Source: Alphaproteobacteria bacterium (GTDB taxonomy: Bacteria; Pseudomonadota; Alphaproteobacteria; Puniceispirillales; UBA1172). Taken from it: a stretch of 60,272 nt of DNA. The notes under the pieces were generated by a model. It saw only the letters and a list, made by a program, of their open reading frames with translations. It ran no database searches and was not told the DNA's origin. This document shows positions 40,455-58,434 of this stretch, one piece after another. The first letter of the stretch is position 1. Each line of letters begins with the position of its first letter. Both the position numbers and the translations under genes were made by a program. The stretch is taken from the NCBI GenBank assembly GCA_016778985.1, contig JADHOM010000011.1, positions 1 to 60,272 on the forward strand, given 5' to 3'.

Positions 40455-42377
40455 TTAGCTTTTATCATGAAACCAATGATAAATGATATCTGCAACATGC
40501 TGTGAAATGCCATTAACTTTCATTAAATCAGGAATATCGGCATTAGCGACAGCGCGCGCTGAACCAAAATGCGTCAATAGAGCCTTTTTGCGGGTCGCGC
40601 CAATCCCCGGGATATCATCAAGCGGATTGCTTTTCTGTGCCGCTGATCGGCGGCTACGGTGTGCGCCAATAGCAAAGCGGTGCGCTTCATCTCTGAGCCG
40701 TTGCAAGAAATGCAAAACAGGGGTATTTTTCGGTAATTGAAAACTGTCTTTATCAGGCTGATGAAACTCCTCGCGGCCGGCGTTTCTGTCAACCCCTTTT
40801 GATATGGCGACTAGCGGCATATCCGTGATGCCCAGCTTTTCCATCACTTCCAATGCCGCCGATAACTGCCCTTTACCGCCATCAAGCAGCACCAAATCTG
40901 GCCAGATACCTGTTTCTCTGTCAGGATCATCGCGGATAGCTCGAGCAAAGCGGCGCGTTAAAACCTCACGCATCATGGCAAAATCATCACCGCCTATCCC
41001 GGCTTTTTCAGAGCTTGCTTTATCTGTATCAATATTAAACTTACGGTAAAAGGATTTCATAAAGCCGTCTTCGCCAGCAACGATCATAGCGCCGACAGCG
41101 TGACTGCCTTGAATATGTGAGTTATCGTAGACTTCTATGCGGCCGGGGCGCTCATCTAATTCAAACAGCTCCTGAACTGCATCCAGCATTTTCTTCTGGG
41201 TCGAGCTTGCTGTTAATTCACGCGCCAATGCTTCACGTGAATTACGTTCTGCCATAGCCATTAATTTGCGACGCTGGCCACGCGCTGGCACCGATATATT
41301 GACCTTACGTGTTGCCTTATTGCTCAACGCCTCAGCAATGAGTTTAGCCTCTAGCATAGTCTGATTGACAAGGATTTCTGGTGGTGGCGGTTTATCGTCA
41401 TAAAACTGGCCAATAAAAGCCGCCAAAATAGCTGCCGGATCATCATCTTTATCATGACGCGGAAAATAGGCGCGATTACCAAAATTAGAGCCATTGCGCA
41501 TGAAAAAGACTTGCACACAGCTTCTGCCGCTATCACTGGTAAAGGCAATAATATCGGCATTAAGCTCGCCTGGTAAATTGATGTCTTGATGGGCTTGGAT
41601 CATGGTCAGGGCGCGGATACGGTTTCGCCATAACGCCGCATCTTCAAACTTTAATGTTTCGGCAGCCTCATGCATGTAGGTTGCGAACTCATCCTGAACA
41701 GAACGCGATTCCCCATTGAGGAAACGGACAGCCTGGTCAACCTGTTTTTGATAATCCTGATGACTAATTTTACCAACACATGGGGCGGTACAGCGTTTGA
41801 TCTGATATTGAAGACATGGTCGTGTCCGTGCTGAGAAAACACTATCCGAACAATTTCGTAACAAAAAGGCGCGGGTTAATTCTGTCACCGTGCGGTTAAC
41901 TGCGCTTGCTGAGGCAAAGGGGCCAAACCACCATGCCTTGCGTTTGCGAGCGCCGCGATGTTTGGCGATCTGTGCCCATTCATGGTCGCGCGTGATCATG
42001 ATATAGGGAAAACTTTTATCATCTCTGAGCAGAATATTAAAACGCGGTTTGAGGGTTTTAATCAGATTGGATTCAAGCAATAAAGCTTCTACCTCCGTGC
42101 GCGTTGTAATGATCTCCATGCTTCGGGTTTCGGCAACCATGCGCGTTAAGCGATGGCTGAGAGCATTGGCGCGGGTATAGCTGAGAACACGATTTTTAAG
42201 CCCTTTAGCCTTGCCGACATAAAGCACCTGACCATCATGACCAAGCATCCGATAGACCCCGGGGCTGGCATCAAGTCGTTTTGCCATATCACGGATGATC
42301 TTTAACCCATGATTGAGATCAGGGGCATCAGGCGTGTTTGGGGTAATGCTGTTTTGATTATTCTTAGTCATAGTCAT
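40455..42377 (-). CDS. uvrC: Excinuclease ABC subunit C
   Basis: Protein of about 640 aa, the dual-incision nuclease of nucleotide excision repair. Domains are an N-terminal GIY-YIG (SPGVYRMLG, VLYVGKAKGLKNRV), a Cys region (CLQYQIKRCTAPCVG), a UvrB-binding UVR motif near residue 230, an RNase H-like C-terminal nuclease (EVYDNSHIQGSHAVGAMIV, LVLLDGGKGQL) and helix-hairpin-helix motifs at the end (DDIPGIGATRKKALL). ATG 42377 is preferred to TTG 42389. Two DnaA boxes lie about 90 bases upstream. Confidence 0.96.
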   Translation of the reverse strand: MTMTKNNQNSITPNTPDAPDLNHGLKIIRDMAKRLDASPGVYRMLGHDGQVLYVGKAKGLKNRVLSYTRANALSHRLTRMVAETRSMEIITTRTEVEALLLESNLIKTLKPRFNILLRDDKSFPYIMITRDHEWAQIAKHRGARKRKAWWFGPFASASAVNRTVTELTRAFLLRNCSDSVFSARTRPCLQYQIKRCTAPCVGKISHQDYQKQVDQAVRFLNGESRSVQDEFATYMHEAAETLKFEDAALWRNRIRALTMIQAHQDINLPGELNADIIAFTSDSGRSCVQVFFMRNGSNFGNRAYFPRHDKDDDPAAILAAFIGQFYDDKPPPPEILVNQTMLEAKLIAEALSNKATRKVNISVPARGQRRKLMAMAERNSREALARELTASSTQKKMLDAVQELFELDERPGRIEVYDNSHIQGSHAVGAMIVAGEDGFMKSFYRKFNIDTDKASSEKAGIGGDDFAMMREVLTRRFARAIRDDPDRETGIWPDLVLLDGGKGQLSAALEVMEKLGITDMPLVAISKGVDRNAGREEFHQPDKDSFQLPKNTPVLHFLQRLRDEAHRFAIGAHRSRRSAAQKSNPLDDIPGIGATRKKALLTHFGSARAVANADIPDLMKVNGISQHVADIIYHWFHDKS

Positions 42378-42463
42378 AATGTGTGCCAATTTCGATCTAT
42401 TGCCAAGGCTGTAGAGCGGTTTTTATATTGCGAATCGACGCCTTAAGTGTCATCCCCTAAATT

Positions 42464-42484
42464 TGTGGATAAGTTTGTGGATAA
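42464..42484 (-). promoter_or_regulatory. Pair of perfect DnaA boxes
   Basis: TGTGGATAA at 42464-42472 and again at 42476-42484, i.e. two TTATCCACA boxes on the minus strand, same orientation, 12 bases apart. They lie 87 bases upstream of uvrC and next to an AT-rich block. A possible role is control of uvrC by DnaA, or part of a replication or DnaA-titration site. Confidence 0.65.
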
Positions 42485-42560
42485 TATCTTGCCATTAGAG
42501 TGCTAATGGGATGTTTCTGGGAAAAACGTTAAATTGCACAAAAATTAGGCATATATATGT

Positions 42561-42589
42561 AAATGTAATAATTTCAATGAGTTACATTT
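42561..42589. repeat. Inverted repeat 1 of the uvrC-uvrB space
   Basis: AAATGTAA (42561-42568) and TTACATTT (42582-42589), perfect 8-bp arms, 13-base spacer. Confidence 0.7.
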
Positions 42590-42600
42590 GGTCAAGCTTA

Positions 42601-42648
42601 AAAATGGTAATTATATTTAAGGATCAGTACGAGATTTATTACCATTTT
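42601..42648. repeat. Inverted repeat 2 of the uvrC-uvrB space
   Basis: AAAATGGTAAT (42601-42611) and ATTACCATTTT (42638-42648), perfect 11-bp arms, 26-base spacer. No T-run follows in either direction beyond the arm itself, so it is not an ordinary terminator. Confidence 0.75.
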
Positions 42649-42731
42649 GTTTCAATTATTTAACGTTGTTAACAAGTTACGGTAAATTACCATCATTGAA
42701 GTGAATTTCATCAATTTGTGAAGCCACGGAT

Positions 42732-44825
42732 TTATTTGAATTTTTTTCTTTGCTGGCGTTTGAAAGCAAGTTGTGGCGCCGAGCCAATTTCCAATTCTGA
42801 GGCTTCAAGTCGTCTAATCTCATCCCTGATCCGTGCGGCTTCTTCAAACTCCAGATTAGCGGCAGCGTTTTGCATTTTCTGTTCAAGACTAGCGACGGTA
42901 TCACGCATAGATTTGCCAACCATAGGGCCGGTTTCTGTTGATACTTCGACACGATCGCCGCGCTCATGAACGGAGCTAAGAATATCCTTAATCTGAGAGC
43001 TTACGGTTGCTGGGGTAATGTTGTTAGCGGTGTTATAGGCGAGCTGTTTCGTGCGGCGGCGATCGGTTTCTGATATAGCATAGTCGATGCTTCCCGTTAT
43101 GCTGTCAGCATATAGGATAACGCGCCCATCAATATTTCTAGCGGCACGACCAATGGTCTGAACCAGTGATGTTCGTGATCGCAAATATCCTTCTTTATCG
43201 GCATCCAAGATGGCAACGAGCGCACATTCAGGGATATCAAGCCCCTCACGCAACAGGTTAATGCCGATCAATACGTCAAACACGCCTAAGCGCAAGTCAC
43301 GGATAATTTCTATCCGTTCAAGTGTCTCAACATCCGAATGCATATAGCGCACTTTGATCCCGGCTTCATGCATATATTCGGTTAAATCTTCTGCCATTTT
43401 CTTGGTCAGGGTGGTGATCAGAACACGCTGATTCTTGGTACTAGCATCGCGACATTCAGCAATCACATCATCAACCTGATGTTCGGTTGGTCGGATAATA
43501 CATTCGGGTTCAACGAGCCCTGTTGGTCGAACAATCTGTTCGATAAATACACCGCCTGTTTGTTCCAGTTCCCACTTGCCGGGGGTTGCTGATACATAAA
43601 TGGTTTGTGGCCGGAACGCATCCCATTCTTCGAATTTAAGCGGCCTGTTATCAAGGCAAGATGGCAGCCGAAAGCCATATTCAGACAAGGTTGTTTTGCG
43701 CGCTCTATCACCTTTATACATAGCCCCGATTTGCGGCACGGTGACATGACTTTCATCAATAAATAACAGCGCATCCTGAGGCAGATATTCAAATAGTGTC
43801 GGTGGCGGTTCACCTTGCCCACGACCAGATAAATAGCGCGAATAATTTTCAATACCGTTGCAGACGCCCGTCGCTTCAATCATCTCAAGGTCAAAATTGG
43901 TGCGTTGTTCTAGCCGCTGCGCTTCCAGCAGGCGGCCGCCTTGCTCTAGCTCATTGAGGCGCGATTTCAGCTCAACGCGGATACTCTTTGTGGCTTGCTG
44001 AAGCGTTGGTTTCGGTGTCACATAATGTGAGTTGGCAAAGATCCGAACTGAGTCTAAATCCTTATCACGTTGACCAGTCAAAGGGTCAAAGCTGGTAATC
44101 GCTTCAATCTCATCGCCAAAGAGAGAGATGCGCCAAGCGCTGACTTCGAGGTGGGCAGGAAAGATTTCAACAACATCACCGCGAACCCGATAACAGCCAC
44201 GCTGAAAAGCCATATCATTTCGCTCATATTGCAATTCGGTTAATTGCCGAAGCAACTGCTGGCGTTCTATGCGCTGACCTTTGAGCAGCCTGATAACCAT
44301 GCTGGAATAGGTTTCAACTGAACCAATGCCATAAATACATGACACCGAAGCGACAATAACAACATCACGGCGTTCTAAAAGCGCGCGGGTTGCGCTATGC
44401 CGCATGCGGTCAATTTGCTCATTAATTGTGGCTTCTTTTTCAATATAAGTATCAGAGCGCGGAACATAGGCTTCGGGTTGATAATAATCATAATAGGAAA
44501 CAAAATATTCTACCGCATTATCTGGAAATAGTGTCTTCATCTCACCATAAAGCTGTGCCGCTAGCGTTTTATTTGGTGCTAAAATCAGCGATGGTTTCTG
44601 CATGGCGTAAATAATATGCGCCATAGTGAATGTTTTGCCTGATCCAGTGACCCCGAGTAACACCTGATCACGGTCAGCTTGCTTAACGCCGTTAACAAGA
44701 TCATGAATAGCCGCAGGCTGATCACCAGCAGGTTTATAATCGGTTTCAAGCCGAAGCGGGATATGCTTATCATGCTCATCAGCGAAAAGAGGCTGTATAG
44801 ATTTTGTAAGACTGTTATCATCCAT
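42732..44825 (-). CDS. uvrB: Excinuclease ABC subunit B
   Basis: Protein of about 697 aa, the damage-verifying helicase-like subunit. It has Walker [15 protein letters not shown], the beta-hairpin region [20 protein letters not shown], helicase motif [41 protein letters not shown] and a C-terminal UVR motif ([15 protein letters not shown]). ATG 44825 (MDDNSL) is preferred to TTG 44834; neither has a good ribosome site. uvrB and uvrC are adjacent and in one direction, but separated by the regulatory-looking space. Confidence 0.96.
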
Positions 44826-44869
44826 AAAAAACAATATAGGGCATTGTCACCGTATCGTGAATAGCCTGA

Positions 44870-56376: not shown

Positions 56377-58434
56377 ATGGCACAAAGCAAAAAGAAGAAG
56401 ACACAAAACGAAGAACAATTGCCTGAGAACGAATCGCTACTGAAGTCAGCAAGCAACGATTCGGGCGAATCGGTCAATATGAGCGAAGAAGCGATCAAGG
56501 CATTGATAAAATCAGGTCGTGAGCGCGGATTTGTCACACATGATGAATTGAATAAGGCATTGCCGCAAGGCGAGCTTACCTCAGAGCAGATCGAAGATGT
56601 TATGGCTGAGCTTAACTCTATGGGGGTTAACGTCGTCGATAATGCTGATCAAGAGGATGTTGTTGAGGATAGCGAGGATAGTGAAGAAACCAGTGCGTCT
56701 TCGTCAGGCAATATCAGTGATGAAAGCCGTGGGTCTGATGATCCTGTCCGCATGTATTTGCGTGAAATGGGTACGGTTGAGCTGTTAACGCGCGAAGGTG
56801 AGATTGCCATTGCAAAACGCATTGAAGCTGGCCGTGAGCTTATGCTTGGCGGGGTATATGAATCGCCTCTGACCATTCGTGCGCTCATTCAATGGCGTGA
56901 TGAGATTGAGCAGGGTAAGGTTTTAATGCGCGATGTCATTGATCTGGAAACAACATTTTCGCGGATTAATGGTGAAGACAGCGATGCCTTAGCTATTGCT
57001 ACAGATGATGATGACAGTATGCTTATCAATCGTTCTGGATTGGCAATCAAATCAGTTGATGATGATGATAACGATAGCGAAGATGAGGACGAAGAGTCTA
57101 ATACCGACAATGCCGAAGGTGATGAAGACGATAGCGAAAAAGACACAAGTGATGGTGACGGTAACGATCTAAACATGTCGCTGGCGGCAATGGAAGATGC
57201 GATTCGTGAAGATGTCATGGTCATGATGGAAGACGTGTTCGTTACCTACAAAGAGTTAAGCCAGCTGCGTGATAAACGCATCACGCAGTTCAAAAAGGGT
57301 GCAACGGTTAATGCCAAAACAGAGGAGCGGTATATATCGCTTCGGCTTAAGCTGATTGAGCAGATGGAACATATTCTGCTTAATACCGGCCGAATTGAAG
57401 CGCTGATGGTTCAGCTTTATGGATTAAACAAACATCTTTCCTCGCTTGAGGGGCAAATGTTGCGCATTTCCATGAAGTGCAATATTAAGCGCCCGCAATT
57501 CCTTGGCTTCTGGTCTGGACATGAGCTTGATAAAGACTGGCCACCTGAAGAGGCTGATTCGGCAGGGTGGAAAAAACTGCGTCAAAACCATGCTGATGAA
57601 ATTGATGAGATTCGTAAATCTATTATTCAGATGATGACAGAAATTGGCATGTCAGTATCTGAGTTCAAAGAGCAGATCCAAGTTATTCAGCGTGGCGAAC
57701 GTGAAGCAGCACGCGCGAAAAAAGAAATGGTTGAGGCTAATCTCCGGCTTGTGATCTCCATCGCCAAAAAATATACAAATCGCGGTTTGCAATTCCTTGA
57801 TTTGATTCAAGAAGGTAATATTGGTCTGATGAAAGCTGTGGATAAGTTTGAATATCGCCGCGGCTATAAGTTTTCCACTTATGCGACGTGGTGGATAAGG
57901 CAGGCCATCACGCGTTCTATTGCTGATCAGGCGCGAACGATTCGTATTCCTGTTCACATGATTGAAACGATCAATAAATTGGTGCGGACATCGCGGCAAA
58001 TGCTTCATGAAATTGGTCGTGAGCCAACACCTGAAGAATTAGCAGAAAAGCTTTCCATGCCCATTCATAAGGTGCGAAATGTTCTAAAAATTGCCAAAGA
58101 GCCGATTAGTCTAGAAACCCCGGTCGGTGATGAAGATGATAGTCATCTAGGTGACTTTATCGAAGATAAGAACGCGGTACAGCCACTTGATTCGGCCATT
58201 TATGTGAGCTTGCGGGCCAAGACAACCCTTGTTCTGGCAGAGCTAACTCCAAGAGAAGAGAGGGTCTTGCGGATGCGTTTTGGCATTGGCATGAACTCGG
58301 ATCATACACTTGAAGAGGTTGGTCAGCAGTTTAGCGTCACCCGTGAACGTATTCGTCAAATTGAGGCAAAAGCGTTACGCAAGCTAAAACATCCATCACG
58401 GTCAAAGAAACTGAGAAGTTTCCTTGATAATTAA
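56377..58434 (+). CDS. rpoD: RNA polymerase primary sigma factor (sigma-70)
   Basis: Protein of 685 aa. Region 1.1 near the start ([20 protein letters not shown]), region 1.2 with [11 protein letters not shown], a long non-conserved region with a very acidic stretch (~228-264, mainly Asp, Glu, Ser, Asn), regions 2.1-2.4 ([57 protein letters not shown]) and region 4.2 ([27 protein letters not shown]). The acidic insertion is typical in kind for alphaproteobacterial sigma-70 but is strongly biased. End of yqeY-dnaG-rpoD. Confidence 0.97.

What the first reader, a model, noticed from the sequence alone, without database searches (positions are those of the whole stretch)
42464..42484. Two perfect DnaA boxes in tandem between uvrB and uvrC
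Perfect 9-mers twice within 21 bases is very unlikely by chance. They face the uvrC gene and adjoin an AT-rich block. Possible meanings are DnaA control of excision repair, a DnaA-titration site, or part of a replication origin.
Basis: partly seen in the sequence, partly recalled or inferred. Interest (0 to 1): 0.55.

Follow-up and report, generated by a model that had tools for sequence, protein, structure and literature searches.

The report
DARS-like DnaA control locus beside uvrC
The two DnaA boxes are part of a conserved control element next to a DNA-repair gene in many alphaproteobacteria; its layout matches the E. coli sites that recharge the replication-starter protein DnaA, so it may be how these bacteria reactivate DnaA.

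Summary
The tandem is real: TTATCCACA-AAC-TTATCCACA, minus strand, 42464-42484, the only such pair in this 2.1-Mb SAR116-type genome. It is not an origin: in two complete relatives, sampled in stretches, GC skew changes sign at hemE, not at uvrC. The boxes belong to a larger module upstream of uvrC, kept in all 10 family relatives whose upstream region I could read. A strict pattern for its core hit 136 of 387 alphaproteobacterial genomes; 68 of 90 inspected hits have uvrC directly downstream. The core (two direct boxes, 12-bp period, then an inverted box) has the geometry of E. coli DARS1 and DARS2. A matrix trained only on alphaproteobacterial cores ranks DARS1 (39.0) and DARS2 (21.5) first in their 50-kb stretches; window 33.9, datA region 14.0, oriC -0.3. 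Fixed upstream positions carry a Fis-consensus palindrome (73 of 112 modules), an IHF consensus (39 of 112; 0 of 8 SAR116) and a distal box (83 of 112). In the window itself the inverted box is weak. Best reading: an alphaproteobacterial DARS-type DnaA-reactivating locus; activity untested.

The parts
42476..42484 (-). DnaA box III (TTATCCACA)
   Evidence: exact match; position -12 of the module, 0-2 mismatches in the 11 SAR116 rows
42464..42472 (-). DnaA box II (TTATCCACA), the anchor of the core
   Evidence: exact match; 0-1 mismatch in the 11 SAR116 rows
42450..42458 (+). degenerate inverted DnaA box I (TCATCCCCT, 3 mismatches to TTATCCACA)
   Evidence: same place and orientation as box I in relatives (TCATCCACG, 2 mismatches, in G008, G010, G011). 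Weaker than in E. coli DARS1 (1 mismatch) and DARS2 (2)
42536..42550 (-). palindrome GCCTAATTTTTGTGC, fits the Fis consensus GNNYAWWWWWTRNNC (consensus recalled)
   Evidence: at -78 in all 8 nonredundant SAR116 modules; 72 hits at -79..-77 over 112 modules
42559..42573 (-). AT-rich place where 36 of 112 modules carry the IHF consensus WATCAANNNNTTR; no consensus match here in the window
   Evidence: 36 hits at -101..-97; 0 of 8 SAR116 modules
42591..42595 (-). TTGAC element at -123 (promoter-like with AATTAT ending at 42568)
   Evidence: TTGAC at -123..-121 in 42 of 112 modules
42667..42675 (-). degenerate distal DnaA box (TTGTTAACA) at -203
   Evidence: TTNTNCACA has 61 hits at -203..-197 over 112 modules, and is TTATGCACA at -202 in 4 SAR116 relatives
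40455..42389 (-). uvrC, the gene downstream of the module
   Evidence: Pfam UvrC_RNaseH_dom
42732..44834 (-). uvrB, the gene upstream of the module
   Evidence: Pfam UvrB_inter and UvrB

Best explanation
It is a DARS-type locus of alphaproteobacteria: a non-coding DnaA-binding element that recharges the initiator. ADP-DnaA would bind boxes II and III side by side and box I head-to-head, lose ADP, leave as apo-DnaA and reload with ATP, which raises initiation capacity at the hemE-linked origin. A protein bending the AT-rich IHF position, a factor on the Fis-type palindrome and DnaA on the distal box would switch it on and off. Shown here: the sequence, its conservation, the core geometry equal to DARS1 and DARS2, the accessory sites at nearly fixed places, and that it is not the origin in two relatives. 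Inferred: DnaA binding, nucleotide exchange, the bound accessory proteins, and the effect on initiation.
For: (1) Same three-box order, orientation and spacing as E. coli DARS1 and DARS2. The two E. coli sites lie inside the DARS1 and DARS2 box I-III stretches bounded by the deletion primers printed in PMC4585315 (compared by eye); PMC5742627 states that box I opposes II and III and that the spacing is the same at both. (2) A matrix from 91 alphaproteobacterial uvrC-linked cores ranks DARS1 first in 50 kb (39.0; next other site -3.5), DARS2 first in 50 kb (21.5), and the window site first in 60 kb (33.9; next -1.3); datA region 14.0, oriC -0.3. (3) 49 perfect boxes in 53,667 bp upstream of 79 uvrC genes, all facing uvrC, against 2 in the other 641,073 bp of the same loci. 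(4) Accessory sites at nearly fixed offsets, while box II to the start of the UvrC match varies from 39 to 619 bp. (5) 12 of 13 core-bearing loci without uvrC downstream, picked by eye, still have a palindrome at -80..-77, beside eno, a histidyl-tRNA-synthetase-like gene, an SbmA-like transporter gene and others; in L241 and L243 the nearest Pfam-supported gene converges on the core. (6) The genome has dnaA, ihfA over cut-off and an Hda-like protein.
Against: In the window itself box I has 3 mismatches and the IHF consensus is missing, as in all 8 nonredundant SAR116 modules for IHF. The strict core pattern misses the window's own module. The datA region site also ranks first in its 50 kb with the matrix (14.0). 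Fis is described as gamma-specific (PMC4245941), so the palindrome's binder is unknown. An IHF-like site between DnaA boxes also resembles datA. In 68 of 90 inspected hits the module lies before uvrC, and a promoter-like TTGAC lies in it, so a role in uvrC transcription stays possible. No binding or exchange was measured.
Confidence: 0.55

Rival explanations
1. A DnaA-responsive promoter region of uvrC: DnaA, with other factors, couples excision-repair gene expression to replication.
For: In 68 of 90 inspected core hits uvrC lies directly downstream on the same strand; TTGAC at -123..-121 in 42 of 112 modules; promoter-like matches in the window gap, 6 against 1.8 expected; E. coli DARS1 lies in the bioD-uvrB gap.
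Against: Distance to uvrC varies 39-619 bp; cores with palindrome beside unrelated genes, in L241 and L243 with the nearest Pfam-supported gene converging; three-box geometry equal to DARS.
Confidence: 0.2
2. A datA-like or titration locus: it binds DnaA to hydrolyse its ATP or to hold it away from the origin.
For: The IHF consensus at about -99 lies between the distal box and the core in many modules, as the IBS lies between boxes in datA (PMC5742627); box I is weak in the window; a datA region site ranks first in its 50 kb with the core matrix (14.0).
Against: The inverted box I is kept with 0-3 mismatches in 108 of 112 modules (much of that set was picked with a pattern that includes it), while the datA site has 5 mismatches there; DARS1 and DARS2 score higher than datA; few boxes per locus, weak for titration.
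Confidence: 0.2
3. Part of a replication origin.
For: DnaA boxes plus an AT-rich block. The hemE stretches of G011 and G001 are themselves poor in consensus boxes (1 and 0 in 12 kb).
Against: Skew changes sign at hemE (G011 between 834 and 930 kb, hemE 867 kb; G001 between 2454 and 2569 kb, hemE 2490 kb) and not at uvrC (642 and 400 kb); own genome has two perfect boxes between hemE and the next ORF; no cumulative-skew minimum at 42.4 kb of the window, whose lowest point is near 12 kb.
Confidence: 0.02
4. Chance pair of boxes.
For: Single boxes of this kind are not enriched in the window.
Against: Conserved in position and layout in 10 of 10 readable relatives and beyond.
Confidence: 0.01

Closest known systems
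DARS1 of E. coli (bioD-uvrB gap)
   Same: Three DnaA boxes, same order, orientation and spacing; non-coding; the one strong site in the 50 kb tested; next to a uvr gene; its core matches the alphaproteobacterial pattern exactly.
   Different: Lies before uvrB and not uvrC, with box III nearest the gene; a regulatory part of about 50 bp is described for DARS1 (PMC5742627), whereas the alphaproteobacterial module spans about 230 bp with palindrome, IHF position and distal box.
DARS2 of E. coli (between rppH and mutH)
   Same: Same core spacing; top matrix hit in its 50 kb (21.5); IHF and Fis sites are described on DARS2 (PMC4245941), and consensus matches for both recur at nearly fixed places here.
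   Different: Order and distances of the accessory sites were not compared; classical Fis is described as gamma-specific; the window lacks the IHF consensus.
datA of E. coli (place recalled)
   Same: DnaA boxes around an IHF site; two direct boxes resemble boxes II and III (14.0).
   Different: The place of box I has 5 mismatches in the matched site.
hemE-linked origin as in Caulobacter (recalled)
   Same: Also holds DnaA boxes and AT-rich DNA.
   Different: On another contig (C10) in this genome; at the skew sign change in two relatives; no match to the core (best -9.5).

Membership tests
DARS | core of three DnaA boxes, box I opposed to II and III, with the DARS spacing | tested here: met
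   Across modules: matrix; (box I 0-3 mismatches in 108 of 112, box III 0-3 in 108 of 112, in a set partly selected for boxes II and I). In the window itself box I has 3 mismatches, more than DARS1 (1) or DARS2 (2).
DARS | non-coding chromosomal site apart from oriC | tested here: met
DARS | IHF site needed for activity (DARS2) | tested here: inconclusive
   IHF consensus at -101..-97 in 36 of 112 modules, but in 0 of 8 nonredundant SAR116 modules, the window included.
DARS | Fis site needed for activity (DARS2) | tested here: inconclusive
   Consensus-type palindrome in 73 of 112 modules, the window included; whether any Fis-like protein binds it is unknown.
DARS | preferential ADP-DnaA binding and ADP release | not testable with these tools
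   Needs purified DnaA.
datA | IHF site flanked by DnaA boxes, no DARS core | tested here: inconclusive
   IHF position lies between distal box and core in many modules, but a DARS-type core is present.
datA | stimulates DnaA-ATP hydrolysis | not testable with these tools
   Needs a biochemical assay.
replication origin | lies at the GC-skew minimum | tested here: not met
   two complete relatives sampled in 20 stretches each; for the window.

The most novel reading that the evidence does not exclude
A DnaA-recharging locus is older than the gamma-proteobacteria and exists in alphaproteobacteria as different as SAR116 and Azospirillum, with another factor on the palindrome in place of Fis. Its repeated placement next to uvr genes ties recharging of the replication initiator to nucleotide excision repair.
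Probability: 0.4. Interest if true: 0.85.

Novelty: new variant of a known kind. Interest (0 to 1): 0.7.

Why it matters
In the passages I read, DARS sites are described for gamma-proteobacteria and E. coli-proximal beta-proteobacteria and linked to fast growth (PMC4451416, PMC4245941, PMC5742627). In the passages I looked at I met no statement on how DnaA-ADP is recharged in alphaproteobacteria. This gives a concrete 40-bp core plus accessory sites to test in culturable hosts such as Azospirillum, Magnetospirillum or Thalassospira, and the palindrome can be used as bait for an unknown regulator. It would extend the DnaA reactivation cycle to another class and ask why it sits beside excision-repair genes.

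Tried and rejected
Origin: rejected on skew and hemE position. RNA element: no Rfam match up to E=1 in 42300-42900. Chance: rejected on conservation. A plain uvrC promoter was kept as a rival. The distance of the locus from hemE was looked at only in two relatives (about 225 kb of 2.33 Mb in G011; about 614 kb of 2.70 Mb in G001) and is not constant. Fujimitsu 2009, the original DARS paper, is not held; PMC10380432 cites it for DARS-like sequences in many proteobacteria, so alphaproteobacterial examples may already be listed there.

Limits of the counts. The 112-module set was selected for having box II, and many of its members for the pattern TTNTCCACAGN5GTGGA, so conservation of boxes II and I in it is partly by construction. 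The distal box, palindrome and IHF were not selected for, except in the 13 loci without a UvrC match downstream, which I picked by eye, partly on the palindrome; of these 6 match the Fis consensus, 3 the IHF consensus at -100/-99 and 5 the distal box; L187 ends too soon to judge uvrC and L225 has uvrB upstream. Of the 80 loci, 79 were used (L021 has no upstream DNA). From these I left out, before the 112 count, the 11 Reyranella-type loci (single box in another context), the loci without a box, and three SAR116 loci already present as G genomes. 131 modules were reduced to 112 at 85% identity. One or more of the 91 training cores is an outlier (lowest score -3.4, median 46.8). Of the hits 90 were inspected (30 given by the tool, 60 chosen by me over families); the rest were not. 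uvrC linkage was scored with the window UvrC by tblastn, so diverged uvrC could be missed.

Full report
The observation. The window holds two perfect TTATCCACA boxes on the minus strand at 42464-42472 and 42476-42484, 12 bp apart start to start, in the gap between uvrB and uvrC, both on the minus strand. The window is contig C14 of a 2.096-Mb genome in 43 contigs. Its relatives by UvrC include a SAR116 cluster bacterium, record NZIT01000116.1, 97% identical over residues 138-644. The pair occurs once in the genome, which has 17 perfect boxes in all, against 7 for the reversed control; about 0.0014 such close same-strand pairs are expected by chance.

Not an origin. In two complete relatives, sampled as 20 stretches of 20 kb each, GC skew changes sign from -0.167 to +0.199 between 834 and 930 kb in G011 (hemE at 867 kb, uvrC at 642 kb), and from -0.059 to +0.060 between 2454 and 2569 kb in G001 (hemE at 2490 kb, uvrC at 400 kb). 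In the own genome hemE lies on contig C10, with two perfect boxes in the gap between hemE and the next ORF, which I take by recall, without a family search, for the DUF299 gene that also flanks the Caulobacter origin. Against this, only one consensus box was found in the 12-kb hemE stretch of G011 and none in that of G001. The window's cumulative skew is flat at 42.4 kb and lowest near 12 kb.

Conserved in relatives. Of 12 genomes in the family, 11 have a detectable uvrC. All 11, the own one included, carry a tandem at a 12-bp period upstream of uvrC, with 0-2 mismatches in box III and 0-1 in box II. The doubly perfect pair is in 2 of 12. The alignment shows more: a TGCC...GGCA-type palindrome about 78 bp before box II, and an inverted third box after it.

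Conserved beyond the family. Of 79 uvrC loci examined (of 80 returned), 52 have a consensus box TTWTNCACA within 500 bp upstream. Perfect boxes: 49 in 53,667 bp upstream, all facing uvrC, against 2 in the other 641,073 bp. The loci with a perfect box include Azospirillum, Magnetospirillum, Nitrospirillum, Thalassospira, Eilatimonas, Curvivirga and Acidocella; the Sphingomonas and Sphingopyxis loci have none. The pattern TTNTCCACAGNNNNNGTGGA, taken from this core, matched 136 of 387 alphaproteobacterial genomes, against 4 matches of the reversed control by my reading of the table; it misses the window's own module, whose box I is weak. I inspected 90 of these hits: 68 have uvrC directly downstream on the same strand. 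In a second draw over the phylum the longer pattern ending GTGGATA matched 128 of 397 genomes: by my count 7 of about 160 of the same class and the rest in other classes. Many complete alphaproteobacterial genomes therefore lack this strict core.

Beside other genes. Of the 22 hits without a UvrC match downstream I picked 13 by eye as module-like. 12 of the 13 have a palindrome at -80..-77, 6 by the strict Fis consensus. Neighbours with Pfam support are an enolase gene (L246), a histidyl-tRNA-synthetase-like gene (L257), an SbmA-like ABC transporter gene (L172), and, converging on the core, a DNA polymerase III delta subunit gene (L243) and a pyridoxal-dependent decarboxylase gene (L241). The other nine hits look to me like coding or unrelated matches; I did not test them further.

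Anatomy. With box II at 0 (112 nonredundant modules; Markov-1 controls over 100 rounds): box III at -12; inverted box I at +14..+22; a palindrome that fits the Fis consensus in 73 modules, 72 hits at -79..-77 (control mean 1.7, maximum 6); the IHF consensus in 39, 36 hits at -101..-97 (control 1.1, maximum 4); a distal box TTNTNCACA in 83, 61 hits at -203..-197 (control 2.8, maximum 8); TTGAC in 60 (control 22.7, maximum 34), 42 at -123..-121. The window has box III, box II, the palindrome, TTGAC, a degenerate box I (TCATCCCCT) and a degenerate distal box (TTGTTAACA). It has no IHF consensus, and neither has any of the 8 nonredundant SAR116 modules. TTGAC plus the AT-rich stretch could also be a promoter.

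Identity. Read on its reverse strand, the site in the E. coli bioD-uvrB gap is TAATACACA-TGG-TTATCCACA-GGAAT-AGTGGATAA: box III, box II, inverted box I, with the spacing of the alphaproteobacterial core. The DARS2 core is TTCTTCACA-ACT-CTATCCACA-GAAAA-GGTGAATAA. Deletion primers for DARS1 and for the DARS2 stretch with boxes I-III, printed in PMC4585315 (passage), bracket these two sites when compared by eye. PMC5742627 (passages and section 21 read) says that DARS1 and DARS2 share three boxes with the same spacing, box I opposed to II and III, and head-to-head contact between DnaA on boxes I and II. A matrix from 91 uvrC-linked cores without SAR116 gave: DARS1 39.0, first in 50 kb (next other site -3.5); DARS2 21.5, first in 50 kb, with a second site at 2969448 scoring 16.6; datA region 14.0, first in its 50 kb; oriC -0.3; window 33.9 (next -1.3); own hemE region at most -9.5. 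By mismatches the inverted box I is 1 in DARS1, 2 in DARS2, 3 in the window and 5 in the datA site. One hit of another class, L297, has the core divergent from uvrB, as in E. coli; of the 30 loci of that search five had uvrC downstream, all five in alphaproteobacterial genomes.

Partners. The own genome has dnaA, an IHF alpha gene over the curated cut-off and a second DnaA-like frame of 243 residues that covers the Hda model below its cut-off. Fis is stated to be specific to gamma-proteobacteria related to E. coli (PMC4245941, passage), so the palindrome must have another binder or none.

What is in print. Searches gave no paper on a uvrC-linked or alphaproteobacterial DARS that I could recognise from the listings. 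PMC4451416 (passage) speaks of DARS in a number of gammaproteobacteria, PMC5742627 of beta and gamma, and PMC10380432 (passage) of many proteobacterial species, citing a paper that is not held. The main text of PMC3193534, on DnaA in Caulobacter, does not contain the word DARS. PMC11853086, PMC7566177, PMC5010248 and PMC12371093 were searched for terms only.

Verdict. A conserved DnaA-binding control locus is well supported (my estimate 0.93). That it acts as a DARS rests on geometry (0.55). Rivals are a uvrC promoter function and a datA-like or titration function. The origin and chance readings are rejected.

Noticed in passing
modules upstream of uvrC, +10..+14 from box II: A GANTC site, the CcrM methylation motif, fills the spacer between boxes II and I in 17 of 112 modules, against a column-shuffle mean of 5.9 and maximum of 13. 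Methylation might modulate the core.
   Followed up: partly
window 42492-42509: Hairpin CCATTAG-AGTG-CTAATGG between palindrome and box III. Inverted repeats seem to recur in this part of other modules; not counted.
   Followed up: no
L268, NC_000913.3 2969448-2969487 (-): A second core-like site about 316 bp from the E. coli DARS2 core scores 16.6 with the alphaproteobacterial matrix.
   Followed up: no
L064, L068, L069, L075, L082, L085, L086, L091, L092, L094, L098: Reyranella-type loci carry a TTATCCACA just after what looks like the stop of an upstream gene and before uvrC, in a context unlike the module.
   Followed up: no
window 57837-57845 (-): A third perfect DnaA box lies inside an ORF (56377-58434) that looks like a sigma factor, by eye.
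   Followed up: no
G052 (6.5 Mb): Five matches of the core pattern in one genome, two of them overlapping on opposite strands, where most matching genomes have one.
   Followed up: no
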